Source: Geobacillus icigianus
Lineage (GTDB): Bacteria; Bacillota; Bacilli; Bacillales; Anoxybacillaceae
Length of the DNA: 50,177 nucleotides
Assembly: GCF_000750005.1 (NCBI RefSeq)
Contig: NZ_JPYA01000010.1
Location: 1-50,177, forward strand
Direction of reading: 5' to 3'
Under the pieces are notes generated by a model. The model had not been told where the DNA came from and made no database searches. It worked only from the letters and a program-made list of their open reading frames with translations. The number at the start of each line of letters is the position of its first letter. Positions within the stretch are counted from its first letter, which is position 1. Shown piece by piece: positions 4,430 to 43,781 of this stretch. The translations under genes and the position numbers were made by a program.

Positions 4430-4566
4430 TAGAAGGCTGTGATTTAATGGCGTATACGGCTTTACCATTTCATTTCTCAATTAGAAAAACCTTGTTGTAT
4501 CCGGCCTGCTTTTCAAACATTCTCCCATTGATGAAGGGGATCAGCGGTTTTTCACCGCCCTCCTAG
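4430..4566 (+). repeat. Dispersed ~135-bp repeat, copy A (subtype 1)
   Basis: A member of a repeat family with seven copies in this window. It contains GTATACGGCTTTACCATTTC (4452-4471), then TTTCTCAATTAGAAA, ending CAGCGGTTTTTCACCGCCCT followed by CCTAGA. It closely matches copies B (21.1 kb) and G (43.7 kb). Its right end overlaps the gyrB stop codon: on the minus strand the gyrB TAG begins the element terminus TAGGAGGGCGGTGAAAAACC. The short GCGGT/ACCGC hairpin at this end could help end the gyrB transcript. Confidence 0.85.
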
Positions 4567-6482
4567 ATATCTAAGTTTTTCACGTAACGCGCGTTTTCTT
4601 CGATAAACTGGCGGCGCGGCTCGACTTTATCGCCCATTAAAATTTCAAACGTTTCGTCCGCATCGATGGCGTCCTGCAAACTCACTTGCAGCAGTGTTCT
4701 CGTCTCTGGATTCATCGTCGTTTCCCAAAGCTGTTCCGGATTCATCTCGCCCAACCCTTTGTAGCGCTGAATCGTCGGTTTGGGCTGATCGGGCAACGCG
4801 GCGAGAATTTGTTCAAGCTGACGGTCGTTGTAAGCGTAACGGACTTGTTTCCCTTGCTCGATTTTATAGAGCGGAGGCTGGGCAATATAAATATAGCCTT
4901 GTTCAATCAATTGGCGCATGTAGCGGTAAAAGAACGTCAAAAGGAGCGTGCGGATGTGAGCGCCGTCAACGTCCGCGTCGGTCATGATAATGACTTTATG
5001 ATAACGGGCTTTCGAGATGTCAAAATCTTCGCCAATGCCCGTGCCAAGCGCCGTAATAATCGCCCGCACCTCATTGTTTGACAAAATTTTGTCCAAGCGT
5101 GCTTTTTCCACGTTAAGAATTTTCCCGCGCAGCGGCAAAATGGCTTGAAAATGGCGGTCACGCCCTTGTTTCGCTGATCCGCCCGCCGAGTCGCCCTCAA
5201 CGACGTACAGCTCGCTGATCGCTGGATCCCGCGATGAACAGTCGGCCAATTTCCCGGGCAAATTGGAAATTTCGAGCGCGCTTTTGCGCCGCGTCAACTC
5301 GCGCGCTTTCTTCGCCGCCAGCCGGGCGCGCGCTGCCATCATGCCTTTTTCCACAATCTTGCGGGCGATTGTCGGGTTTTCCAGCAAAAACGTTTCAAAC
5401 TGTTCGGAAAAAATTGCATCGGTCACCGTACGGGCATCGCTGTTGCCAAGCTTCGTTTTCGTCTGCCCTTCAAATTGCGGAGACGGGTGTTTGATCGACA
5501 CGATGGCGGTCAATCCTTCACGCACATCCTCACCGGTTAAATTGGCATCGTTGTCTTTCACCAATTGTTGCTTGCGGGCATAGTCGTTGATAATGCGCGT
5601 CAGCGCCATTTTAAAGCCGGATTCATGCGTGCCGCCTTCATGCGTATGAATGTTGTTGACGAACGAATAGATGTTGCTCGTGTACCCGTCGTTGTACTGC
5701 AAGGCGATTTCAACCGCAATGCCGTCCCGCTCGCCGGCGATATAAATCGGCTCCTCATGCAGCACTTCGCGCGTTCGGTTCAAATGCTGGACATAGGAGC
5801 GAATGCCGCCTTCATAAACATATTCGTTTCTCCGGTTGTCAACCCGTTCATCGGTCAACGTGATTTTCAAGCCGCGATTTAAAAAGGCGAGCTCGCGCAA
5901 CCGGGCGGCCAGCGTTTCGTAATCGAACTCAATCGTTTCGGTAAAAATCTCTGGGTCCGGCTTAAAACGGGTCGTTGTCCCGGTTCGGTCCGTTTCGCCG
6001 ATGATTTGCAGGTCCGTACAAGGCTCTCCCCGCTCGTACCGCTGGTAATGGATGTTTCCATCGCGATACACGTACACTTCGAGCCACTCCGACAGGGCGT
6101 TGACGACGGAAGCGCCAACCCCGTGCAAGCCGCCGGATACTTTATAACCCCCTCCGCCAAACTTCCCGCCGGCATGCAGAACGGTCATAATGACTTCAAC
6201 AGCCGGGCGACCAGTCGCTTCATGAATGTCAACCGGGATGCCGCGTCCATTGTCGGCGACGGTGATGCTGTTGTCTTTGCCGATCGTCACATCAATGGTC
6301 GTGCAATAGCCTGCCAGCGCTTCGTCGATGCTGTTGTCGACGATTTCCCAAACGAGGTGGTGCAGCCCTTTTGATCCCGTTGATCCGATATACATTCCCG
6401 GGCGCTTGCGGACGGCTTCAAGGCCTTCAAGCACTTGAATTTGACTTGCATCGTACGCCTCGACTCGCTGTTCCATGGTCAT
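4563..6482 (-). CDS. gyrB: DNA gyrase subunit B
   Basis: 639-residue GyrB, the ATPase subunit of gyrase. The N-terminal GHKL ATPase has EIVDNSIDEALAGYC, DNGRGIPVD and GGLHGVGASVVNALS; the transducer follows; the C-terminal TOPRIM has VEGDSAGGSAKQGRDR, DADVDGAHIRTLLLTFFYR and KIEQGK-type metal-binding and GyrA-contact motifs. The start used has TAGGTGA 6 nt upstream; a second ATG two codons later (MEQRVEAYDASQ) aligns better with B. subtilis and is possible. It follows recF by 41 bp, with no remB gene between. The stop codon lies inside the terminus of a dispersed repeat. Confidence 0.98.
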   Translation of the reverse strand: MTMEQRVEAYDASQIQVLEGLEAVRKRPGMYIGSTGSKGLHHLVWEIVDNSIDEALAGYCTTIDVTIGKDNSITVADNGRGIPVDIHEATGRPAVEVIMTVLHAGGKFGGGGYKVSGGLHGVGASVVNALSEWLEVYVYRDGNIHYQRYERGEPCTDLQIIGETDRTGTTTRFKPDPEIFTETIEFDYETLAARLRELAFLNRGLKITLTDERVDNRRNEYVYEGGIRSYVQHLNRTREVLHEEPIYIAGERDGIAVEIALQYNDGYTSNIYSFVNNIHTHEGGTHESGFKMALTRIINDYARKQQLVKDNDANLTGEDVREGLTAIVSIKHPSPQFEGQTKTKLGNSDARTVTDAIFSEQFETFLLENPTIARKIVEKGMMAARARLAAKKARELTRRKSALEISNLPGKLADCSSRDPAISELYVVEGDSAGGSAKQGRDRHFQAILPLRGKILNVEKARLDKILSNNEVRAIITALGTGIGEDFDISKARYHKVIIMTDADVDGAHIRTLLLTFFYRYMRQLIEQGYIYIAQPPLYKIEQGKQVRYAYNDRQLEQILAALPDQPKPTIQRYKGLGEMNPEQLWETTMNPETRTLLQVSLQDAIDADETFEILMGDKVEPRRQFIEENARYVKNLDI

Positions 6483-6523
6483 GCCTGATCACCTACGCTT
6501 TCTTTGCAAACGTTCAATCACGA

Positions 6524-42431: not shown

Positions 42432-43574
42432 GTGAAAATTGTCATTGCTCCTGATTCATTTAAGGAAAGTCTTTCGGCGCTCGAAGTCGCTGAGGCGGTG
42501 GAGCGCGGGTTTCGCGCCGTGTTTCCGGAAGCGGACTATGTGAAAGTGCCGATGGCCGATGGCGGGGAAGGAACCGTACAATCGTTGGTTGACGCAACGA
42601 ATGGCCGCTTGATAAACGTCGAAGTGACAGGACCGTTAGGCGACCCTGTGCCAGCGTTTTTCGGCTTGCTTGGCGACGGAAAGACAGCGGTGATTGAAAT
42701 GGCGGCTGCCTCGGGACTCCACCTTGTTCCGCGCCATCGCCGCAATCCGCTGCTGACGACGACGCGCGGAACAGGGGAATTACTTCGTGCGGCGCTCGAT
42801 GCCGGGGCGACTCGCTTGGTGATCGGCATTGGCGGCAGTGCGACGAACGATGGGGGAGCGGGCATGGTGCAAGCGCTAGGTGGACGGCTGTTGGATCGCG
42901 ACGGCCGCGACATTGGTCCGGGAGGAGGCGCTTTGGCCGATCTATATGCGATTGACCTTTCTGGGCTGGATCCACGCCTTGAACACGTTTGCATTGAGGT
43001 TGCTTGTGACGTCGAGAATCCGCTTACGGGGCCGAACGGCGCGTCCGTCATCTTTGGCCCGCAAAAAGGGGCGACGCCCGACATGGTCGCCGTTCTCGAC
43101 CGGAATTTGGCGCATTATGCGGATGTCGTCGAGCGCGAACTCGGGAGGCGGGTCGGCGACATCCCGGGCGCTGGTGCGGCGGGTGGCTTAGGAGCGGGAT
43201 TGCTGGCGTTTCTAAAGGCGCGGTTGAGGCGCGGCGTCGATATTGTGATCGAAGCCGTCCAACTAGCAGAACGCGTCAAAGACGCTGATTTGGTGATCAC
43301 GGGCGAGGGACGGATCGATGGACAGACGGTTTTCGGCAAAACGCCGATCGGTGTCGCGAAAACAGCGAAACGGTTTGGCGTCCCAGTCATCGGCATTGCC
43401 GGGTCATTGGGGGAAGACAGTCATGTCGTGTTGGATCACGGCATTGACGCATTGTTTACGATTGTTCCTGGCGTCGTGCTGCTTGACAAGGCGCTGGAGC
43501 AGGCGGAGCAGTATGTGGTGCAGACGGCGCGACACATCGCTGCGGTGTATCGTCTTGGCCAAAGCAGAGGATGA
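42432..43574 (+). CDS. glxK: Glycerate kinase (GlxK/GarK family)
   Basis: 380-residue type I glycerate kinase, ATP-dependent, feeding glycerate into glycolysis as a phosphoglycerate. Family segments are IAPDSFKESLSALEVAEAVERG, MADGGEGTV, GGSATNDGGAGMVQALGGRLLD and ITGEGRIDGQTVFGKTPIGVAK. The start is GTG 42432 with GGAGGGG 6 nt upstream; an ATG ten codons earlier overlaps that site. The gene is single, followed by a repeat-rich stretch. The 2- or 3-phosphate product cannot be told from sequence here. Confidence 0.93.
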   Translation: MKIVIAPDSFKESLSALEVAEAVERGFRAVFPEADYVKVPMADGGEGTVQSLVDATNGRLINVEVTGPLGDPVPAFFGLLGDGKTAVIEMAAASGLHLVPRHRRNPLLTTTRGTGELLRAALDAGATRLVIGIGGSATNDGGAGMVQALGGRLLDRDGRDIGPGGGALADLYAIDLSGLDPRLEHVCIEVACDVENPLTGPNGASVIFGPQKGATPDMVAVLDRNLAHYADVVERELGRRVGDIPGAGAAGGLGAGLLAFLKARLRRGVDIVIEAVQLAERVKDADLVITGEGRIDGQTVFGKTPIGVAKTAKRFGVPVIGIAGSLGEDSHVVLDHGIDALFTIVPGVVLLDKALEQAEQYVVQTARHIAAVYRLGQSRG

Positions 43575-43642
43575 GGACTAGGGAAAAAGAAAGCAGGCAG
43601 AGCGTCCCGGTCGCATCCAAGAGTCAACAATCAAGTGAGGAC

Positions 43643-43781
43643 TAGAAAGTTGATGATCTAATCCCGGATACGGCTTTACAATGTCATTTCTCAACGAGAA
43701 AAAACCTTGTTACATCGGTTCGGCTTTTCACGCCTTCTCCCATTGATGAAAGGCAGTATCCATTTTTCACCAGTATTCTAG
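43643..43781 (+). repeat. Dispersed ~135-bp repeat, copy G (subtype 1)
   Basis: It contains GGATACGGCTTTACAATGTC, TTTCTCAACGAGAAA and CCCATTGATGAAAGGCAGTA and ends TTTTTCACCAGTATTCTAGG, close to copies A and B. A ~20-bp sequence, CTAGGGAAAAAGAAAGCAGG (43578-43598), recurs at its right edge as CTAGGAAAAAGAAAGCAGGC (43778-43797), exactly 200 bp apart. The right copy is part of the manA terminator. Confidence 0.85.

What the first reader, a model, noticed from the sequence alone, without database searches (positions are those of the whole stretch)
4430..43781. Seven-copy family of ~135-bp intergenic elements in three sequence subtypes
Copies: A 4430-4566, B 21091-21224, C 21225-21360, D 21361-21495, E 24595-24728, F 24729-24864 (inverted), G 43643-43781. 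All share inverted ends (GGAGGnnGGTGA and TCACCnnCCTCC), a TTTCTCAA core, CTTGTTGC, a CCATTGATCAAGG-like segment and CGGTTTTTCACC. The bodies fall into three subtypes: A/B/G, C/F and D/E. Constant ends and skeleton with divergent bodies suggest a structured RNA or a non-autonomous mobile element (REP/MITE-like) whose subtypes still spread. Seven copies in 50 kb of core genome is dense.
Basis: seen in the sequence. Interest (0 to 1): 0.8.

Follow-up and report, generated by a model that had tools for sequence, protein, structure and literature searches.

The report
Gene-free jumping repeats of Geobacillus
The seven repeats are copies of a small, gene-free "jumping" DNA element present in well over a hundred copies in this Geobacillus genome, very probably moved by the enzyme of a full-sized insertion sequence with the same ends; it is a large new family of a known kind, not a structured RNA.

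Summary
In detail: all seven copies are real, at the stated places to within a few bases, in three subtypes. The unit is a ~130-bp element with terminal inverted repeats (RAGGCYGGTGA / TCACCRGCCTY) flanked by a 4-bp direct repeat, mostly CTAG. The fetched parts of this genome hold 176 distinct full-length copies; 115 of 176 carry identical flanking 4-mers (shuffled 63.6 +/- 4.2). All 14 genomes searched in the genus have matches. Seven orthologous empty sites show precise insertion with 4-bp duplication; window copies A and E/F are missing from 13 of 13 relatives. Arrays arise because each insertion supplies new CTAG targets. A partner was found: an IS1182-like element (~1.55 kb, 489-aa transposase) with the same terminal repeat, the same targets, and copies abutting the small elements; this genome keeps one transposase frame without stops. 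Neither the terminal stem nor any listed internal helix shows covariation, so a structured RNA is not supported. Verdict: a MITE family mobilised in trans, a known kind (precedent: IS1182-linked MITEs of Methanosarcina acetivorans). Unexplained: an internal core conserved between subtypes that I did not find in the IS.

The parts
4433..4562 (+). copy A (subtype A/B/G), between gyrB and gyrA; flanked by CTAG 4429-4432 and CTAG 4563-4566, the latter holding the gyrB stop codon
   Evidence: absent from 13 of 13 congeneric gyrB-gyrA spacers
4416..4432 (+). solo right end of an older element (TTCACCGACCCTCCTAG) abutting copy A
   Evidence: sequence; by eye
21094..21222 (+). copy B (subtype A/B/G); left 4-mer decayed (TGAG), right TTAG 21223-21226
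21227..21358 (+). copy C (subtype C/F), sharing TTAG 21223-21226 with B and TTAG 21359-21362 with D
21363..21492 (+). copy D (subtype D/E); right TTAG 21493-21496
24597..24726 (+). copy E (subtype D/E); left CTAG 24593-24596 contains the ychF stop codon TAG
   Evidence: absent from 13 of 13 congeneric ychF-rpsF spacers (read by eye)
24731..24861 (-). copy F (subtype C/F), inverted, sharing CTAG 24727-24730 with E; other CTAG 24862-24865
   Evidence: absent from 13 of 13 relatives (read by eye)
43646..43777 (+). copy G (subtype A/B/G); CTAG 43642-43645 and 43778-43781
43570..43598 (+). paralogous 'empty' copy of the site into which G inserted; G's flanks joined over one CTAG match it apart from one extra G

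Best explanation
The repeats are a MITE family of about 130 bp. An IS1182-like transposase encoded elsewhere in the genome recognises the shared terminal inverted repeats, moves the element in trans and inserts it at CTAG-like tetranucleotides (CTAG, CTAA, TTAG, ATAG), duplicating the four bases. Each insertion leaves such a target at both ends, so later insertions land there and build head-to-tail and inverted arrays. Copies persist mainly between genes, some at TAG stop codons, where the duplication keeps the stop. Shown: precise insertion, 4-bp duplication, terminal repeat and targets shared with the IS, mixed MITE-IS arrays, recent copies. Inferred: that this transposase, rather than a lost sister, does the moving.
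For: Empty/filled pairs: of 10 distinct sites printed, 7 give a readable duplication: CTAG (2, plus 1 with a left TTAG), CTAA (3), CTAT (1). Left/right 4-mers identical in 65 of 95 copies, shuffled 36.3 +/- 2.8, maximum 48 of 10,000; in the own genome 115 of 176, shuffled 63.6 +/- 4.2, maximum 79. The same columns show no excess of complementarity. Window copies A and E/F absent in 13 of 13 congeners. IS1182-like element: same 11-bp terminal repeat (MITE ends match its consensus at 9.25 and 9.62 of 11 positions, shuffled about 3.5); MITE left end goes on matching one IS end (closer to it than to the other in 123 of 125 ends over the next 15 positions, 8.05 matches against 3.91 shuffled); MITE right end shares the A-run of the other IS end (116 of 116 over the next 4 positions). 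IS flanks carry identical 4-mers in 10 of 13 copies: CTAG, CTAA, ATAG. MITE-MITE-IS and MITE-IS arrays sharing CTAG in G000 C200 and G012. Transposase frames without stops in G012 (4), G009 (2), G001, G002, G006 and the own genome at C26:3258-4736. Closest own-genome copies 99.3% identical.
Against: No transposition was observed. MITE number does not follow intact IS number: G008 and G010 have 38 and 27 matches but only a 123-base IS fragment (plus, in G010, an 89-base end piece), and G004 has 9 matches and no IS match. Past the A-run the MITE right end does not match IS end A (1.06 of 11 positions, shuffled 2.71), so similarity is confined to about 26 bp on the left and 15 bp on the right; the MITE body is not a simple deletion of this IS. 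The transposase scores 229.7 against NCBIfam's IS1182 cut-off of 270, so its family is nearest-match, not formal. Three of 10 printed empty-site candidates are unreadable.
Confidence: 0.9

Rival explanations
1. The copies are a structured RNA or attenuator-like regulatory element dispersed between genes.
For: Most of the 15 single copies folded form the terminal stem; the skeleton is conserved between subtypes; 59 of 69 copies lie mostly outside predicted ORFs. Some isolated column pairs pair above independence (best 0.96 against 0.57), but they do not stack into helices and share columns, as subtype history would give.
Against: Terminal stem: 85.2% of cells pair, shuffled 85.5%; 5 pairs with a double change, shuffled 4.9. 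None of the 25 listed helices in 100 unique copies exceeds independence by more than 1.5 points. RNAalifold predicts 0 pairs on the 46-copy alignment, not even the terminal stem. Singleton changes in the core are not significantly rarer than elsewhere (odds ratio 0.76, p 0.11). Copies A, E, F absent at orthologous sites.
Confidence: 0.03
2. It is a MITE, but mobilised by a different, unsampled or extinct transposase with the same kind of ends.
For: The MITE body does not derive from the IS found, and the right end matches it only through the A-run; G008, G010 and G004 have MITEs without a full IS copy.
Against: In 1.2 Mb of three relatives plus 103 loci and the window, only this IS showed paired ends (up to one substitution in the end pattern); the left end follows it to about 26 bp, the targets are the same; 13 of 14 genomes carry this IS or pieces of it.
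Confidence: 0.07
3. REP/BIME-type repeats moved by a RAYT (TnpA-REP, IS200/IS605-like) transposase.
For: Mostly intergenic, arrays in both orientations, inverted repeats.
Against: A target-site duplication is present and the units have two ends about 100 bp apart, not one short palindrome; IS200/IS605-type insertion makes no duplication (recalled). A RAYT gene was not searched for.
Confidence: 0.01

Closest known systems
MITEs linked to ISMac2 (IS1182 family) in Methanosarcina acetivorans (PMC3852290, Table 4; passages seen)
   Same: Small gene-free elements (160 bp, 14 copies, IR 26, DR 4; and 169 bp, 7 copies, IR 25, DR 0) tied to an IS1182 element; the paper says similarity of its MITEs to their partners is generally confined to the ends.
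   Different: Archaeal; few copies. Here at least 176 copies in one genome, several subtypes, arrays, a conserved internal core. No sequence comparison with the ISMac2 MITEs was made.
IS1182-like element of Geobacillus (e.g. plasmid NC_022092.1 21342-22890, annotated 'IS5 family transposase')
   Same: Same terminal repeat, same targets, 4-bp duplication.
   Different: About 1.55 kb with a 489-aa transposase; similarity to the MITE stops about 26 bp (left) and 15 bp (right) from the ends.
Other bacterial intergenic MITEs: Correia elements, RUP, ERIC, BOX (recalled, not tested)
   Same: Short, intergenic, tens to hundreds of copies, terminal inverted repeats, moved or presumed moved in trans.
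   Different: Different ends and targets (RUP and Correia: TA, recalled); I recall no CTAG arrays among them.

Membership tests
MITE (non-autonomous DNA transposon) | terminal inverted repeats | tested here: met
   CTAGRAGGCYGGTGA / TCACCRGCCTYCTAG; 85.2% of cells pair in 46 copies against 38.5-53.8% when slid
MITE (non-autonomous DNA transposon) | target-site duplication | tested here: met
   115 of 176 identical 4-mers against 63.6 shuffled; 7 readable of 10 distinct empty sites printed
MITE (non-autonomous DNA transposon) | small, no transposase gene | tested here: met
   129-132 bp between the 4-mers in the seven window copies, room for at most 44 codons
MITE (non-autonomous DNA transposon) | autonomous partner with matching ends | tested here: met
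   right end matches only through the A-run
MITE (non-autonomous DNA transposon) | insertion polymorphism between relatives | tested here: met
MITE (non-autonomous DNA transposon) | mobilisation in trans shown | not testable with these tools
   needs a transposition assay
IS1182 family (partner IS) | transposase reaches NCBIfam NF033551 cut-off | tested here: not met
   229.7 bits against 270; best of the 6 NCBIfam models listed, E 7.1e-68
IS1182 family (partner IS) | DUF772 and DDE domains | tested here: met
   PF05598, PF01609, PF13751 above gathering scores (on the open stretch of the G007 copy)
structured RNA family | covarying helices | tested here: not met
structured RNA family | match to a described family | tested here: not met
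   no Rfam match in the copies at gathering threshold (one rRNA hit elsewhere in the window)
REP/BIME with RAYT | insertion without target duplication (recalled) | tested here: not met
   duplications
REP/BIME with RAYT | associated RAYT gene | not tested
   no search made

The most novel reading that the evidence does not exclude
The internal core (GTTTCTCAA-N-T-N-GAAAAA-N-CTTG, body columns 40-63) is a cis-acting transposition site, for the transposase or a host DNA-bending factor, that the full-sized IS lacks. Selection acts on it only in lineages that still jump: across the consensus sequences of seven tight clusters (four subtypes) it is invariant in 15 of 23 columns, against 13 of 74 in the rest of the body, yet resident copies mutate there at nearly the background rate. 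The MITE would then be better at being moved than its own IS, which could explain why MITEs outnumber the IS so greatly.
Probability: 0.25. Interest if true: 0.55.

Novelty: new member of a known kind. Interest (0 to 1): 0.4.

Why it matters
It explains a dense repeat family across Geobacillus, a genus used for thermostable enzymes and thermophile genetics, and names its likely mobilising enzyme, with open copies and a defined target, so that trans-mobilisation of a bacterial MITE can be tested directly. It also warns against reading such repeats as non-coding RNA: here the terminal 'stem' behaves as a transposase recognition sequence, and the test that tells the two apart (flanking columns vary as direct repeats, not as base pairs) is general.

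Tried and rejected
Rejected: structured RNA. In one search RNAalifold gave no pairs on the 58-copy set or on the 29-copy D/E cluster; in the 11-, 10- and 3-copy clusters it gave the terminal stem plus scattered short helices with covariation terms of only -0.1 to -1.2. Rejected: tandem duplication as the source of arrays (neighbours in the window differ in subtype; of 14 abutting pairs in own-genome stretches 7 have the same and 7 opposite orientation; the subtypes of the other pairs were not tabulated). Rejected: special self-targeting; element ends hold 33 of 121 CTAGs that are at element ends or not wholly inside ORFs (27%), and 14 abutting pairs among 44 copies (32%) is about what equal use of CTAG gives (CTAA and TTAG targets left out of that estimate). 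Looked for and not found: longer relatives made of MITE halves around cargo (4 pairs of partial hits, 113-195 bp apart, in three loci, none cargo-sized); core motif outside elements (0 of 46); copy E in 72,556 plasmid and 50,697 phage records; MITEs beside IS homologues in named genomes (16 of 30 loci given, 4 of them Geobacillus, 0 matches). Terminator/promoter scan over 20900-25100: terminator-like 8 against 6.8 shuffled, one of them inside copy F (24733-24750); promoter-like 8 against 3.0, none in a copy.

Errors corrected on the way: one search reported short transposase ORFs for L165, L168 and L191 because the match was trimmed before the stop codon, which the target duplication supplies; one search shows these frames open.

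Limits: one search scored only 150 of 2192 candidates; searches scored 52 and 78 per genome with stricter filters, so copy numbers there are lower bounds; 176 counts only fetched parts. Density estimates differ: 44 copies in 444,818 bases would be 342 per genome, but the contigs were taken from those already known to hold copies; C185, the longest contig then known to me, alone gives 5 in 180 kb, or 96. Gene context used a greedy ORF caller, not an annotation. Searches that bear on print; I saw listings only (20 shown), none describing this family; the library is open-licence PMC, so subscription papers and ISfinder are not covered. Two repeat surveys were checked by word: PMC2267715 has no Geobacillus, PMC12306157 neither.
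Full report
Observation. Seven related ~130-bp elements lie in the window between genes: A between gyrB and gyrA; B-C-D between an ORF without a family match (20307-21005) and the 3' end of yyaC; E-F between ychF and rpsF; G between a glycerate kinase gene and the 3' end of manA. Measured between the flanking 4-mers they are 129-132 bp long.

How many and where. A covariance model from 46 copies (terminal stem only as structure) gave 150 matches in the own genome, its cap, the weakest at 94.8 bits. Pieces fetched from that genome contain 176 distinct full-length copies. 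Of 61 genomes 17 match: all 14 of the genus, and 3 of 23 from other genera of the family with 1, 2 and 4 matches; 0 of 24 from other families. In the family search again 14 of 14 and 3 of 27. From matching contig length and coordinates I infer that G013 is Geobacillus thermocatenulatus BGSC 93A1 and G001 Geobacillus genomosp. 3. Copy E has no match in the plasmid or phage collections.

Not an RNA. On 46 copies the terminal stem pairs in 85.2% of cells against 85.5% after shuffling, with 5 doubly changed pairs against 4.9. On 100 unique copies none of the 25 listed helices pairs above what its columns give independently by more than 1.5 points; some isolated column pairs do (up to 0.96 against 0.57), without stacking. 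Among the 40 strongest covarying column pairs were two that link the left and right flanking 4-mers, with 0% and 6% complementary pairing: they vary as identical letters. That is a target-site duplication. Tested directly, 65 of 95 copies have identical 4-mers (103 rows, 3 dropped as identical, 5 for gaps), shuffled 36.3 +/- 2.8, and complementarity shows no excess. In the own genome 115 of 176, shuffled 63.6 +/- 4.2, maximum 79 in 10,000 shuffles; among the 93 pairs that are not both CTAG, 32 are identical: CTAA 13, TTAG 11, ATAG 4, four others once each.

Insertion seen directly. Syntenic 400-kb stretches of G007, G008 and G013 hold 38 hits in 34 clusters. Of 55 cluster-by-genome comparisons with both flanks found, 18 had a junction gap between -40 and +60; those within 10, and cluster 12, were printed, ten distinct sites in all; clusters 4, 5 and 30 were not looked at further. 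Seven sites are readable: duplications CTAG, CTAA or CTAT, the last showing that the fourth base belongs to the target. One of the seven has an empty allele two bases longer, one has a left TTAG against a right CTAG. Three (clusters 10, 12, 14) are too diverged or rearranged to read. In the window, A and E/F are missing from 13 of 13 relatives (by profile; by eye), and the flanks of G joined over one CTAG match a paralogous stretch about 65 bp upstream apart from one extra G. The closest own-genome copies are 99.3% identical.

The partner. Scanning the 1.2 Mb, 103 loci and the window for end patterns outside known copies gave one pair, 1.56 kb apart. It is an insertion sequence with DUF772 and DDE transposase domains; its best NCBIfam model is IS1182, below the curated cut-off (229.7 of 270 with the intact protein). 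It occurs whole or in pieces in 13 of 14 genomes of the genus. Its ends and the MITE ends share the 11-bp repeat (9.25 and 9.62 of 11 positions, about 3.5 shuffled). Over the next 15 positions the MITE left end (GGTGATTTAATGG-GC) follows IS end B (GGTGAATTAATGGGGC): 8.05 matches against 3.91 shuffled, closer to B than to A in 123 of 125 ends. The MITE right end shares the A-run of IS end A (116 of 116 closer to A over 4 positions) but nothing beyond it (1.06 of 11, shuffled 2.71) (hyphen marks a variable base). Ten of 13 IS copies have identical flanking 4-mers, CTAG, CTAA or ATAG. In G000 contig C200 two MITEs and the IS abut at shared CTAGs, and in G012 one MITE and the IS do. The transposase frame ends in the TAG or TAA of the target duplication, so target choice supplies the stop. 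Frames without internal stops are present in G012 (4), G009 (2), G001, G002, G006 and, at 93% identity, in the own genome (C26:3258-4736); the second own copy has one internal TAG.

Arrays. In 444,818 bases of the own genome 44 copies form 14 abutting pairs, 7 in the same and 7 in opposite orientation. Element ends supply 33 of the 121 CTAGs that are at element ends or not wholly inside predicted ORFs, so equal use of CTAG predicts about what is seen. No special targeting need be invoked. Of 69 copies, 10 lie mostly inside a predicted ORF against 2854 of 3200 random windows, and 9 have a boundary at the stop codon of a neighbouring ORF, as A (gyrB) and E (ychF) do.

What is left over. Between the consensus sequences of seven tight clusters (four subtypes) the ends are invariant in 13 of 15 and 14 of 19 columns and the core in 15 of 23, but the rest of the body in only 13 of 74. 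Within clusters, changes seen once are spread nearly evenly: core 45 of 2810 cells, ends 88 of 3962, rest 196 of 9294 (core against rest p 0.11, ends against rest p 0.69). All non-majority letters are 6.6% in the core and 8.8% in the rest (not tested), so a mild constraint on resident copies is not excluded. I read this as: resident copies decay roughly neutrally while the jumping lineages keep ends and core. The ends are explained by the transposase; the core is not, because I saw nothing like it in the IS ends (by eye; the two 40-bp IS ends and the 90-bp ends). I take it as a candidate internal transposition site. Detection by profile could hide copies mutated at conserved columns, which would bias towards fewer changes there.

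Against the reading. MITE counts do not follow intact IS counts: G003 and G007 have many MITEs and broken IS frames, G008 and G010 no full copy, G004 none. I take this as past bursts followed by IS loss, as the archaeal MITE survey also proposes for partnerless MITEs (PMC3852290, passages), but a second transposase cannot be excluded.

Known or new. MITEs tied to an IS1182 element, one with a 4-bp duplication, are in print for Methanosarcina acetivorans (PMC3852290, Table 4, passages). A survey of IS in G. kaustophilus HTA426 does not contain the words IS1182 or miniature, and its IS table lists no IS1182 (PMC8024623, passages); the CX412 genome paper only counts IS1182-family transposases (PMC9693769, one passage). 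My searches found no description of this repeat family. It is a new member of a known kind, unusually abundant, with one unexplained feature.

Noticed in passing
L179 1501-2970 and homologues: The IS1182-like transposase gene has no stop codon of its own; TAG or TAA of the target duplication ends the frame.
   Followed up: yes
window 47555-47788: Imperfect repeat with 21-bp spacing (seven 87-nt windows in register) inside an ORF at 46687-48087, suggesting a protein with 7-residue repeats.
   Followed up: no
window 20060-20080 and 34657-34677: Two parS-like palindromes (TGTTCCACGTGAAACA / TGTTTCACGTGAAACA; consensus recalled), found as an inverted pair.
   Followed up: no
window 9309-9340: Palindrome around TCCACATGTGGA in the spacer between ORFs 8052-9248 and 9360-10712, possibly DnaA boxes (recalled).
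   Followed up: no
G008:C1:2947948-2948070, G010:C20:9601-9723, G013:C1:521317-521439: An isolated 123-base fragment of the IS (query 494-616, 90-93% identical) occurs in three genomes; in G008 it is the only IS match.
   Followed up: no
G011:C3: Twelve listed places encode a distant (32-33% identical) IS1182-like transposase, a separate multi-copy element.
   Followed up: no
L010 1364-1503, cluster 2: A further MITE subtype (GTGCAAAATACTACTGATTCC body) not present in the window; 10 copies in cluster 2.
   Followed up: partly
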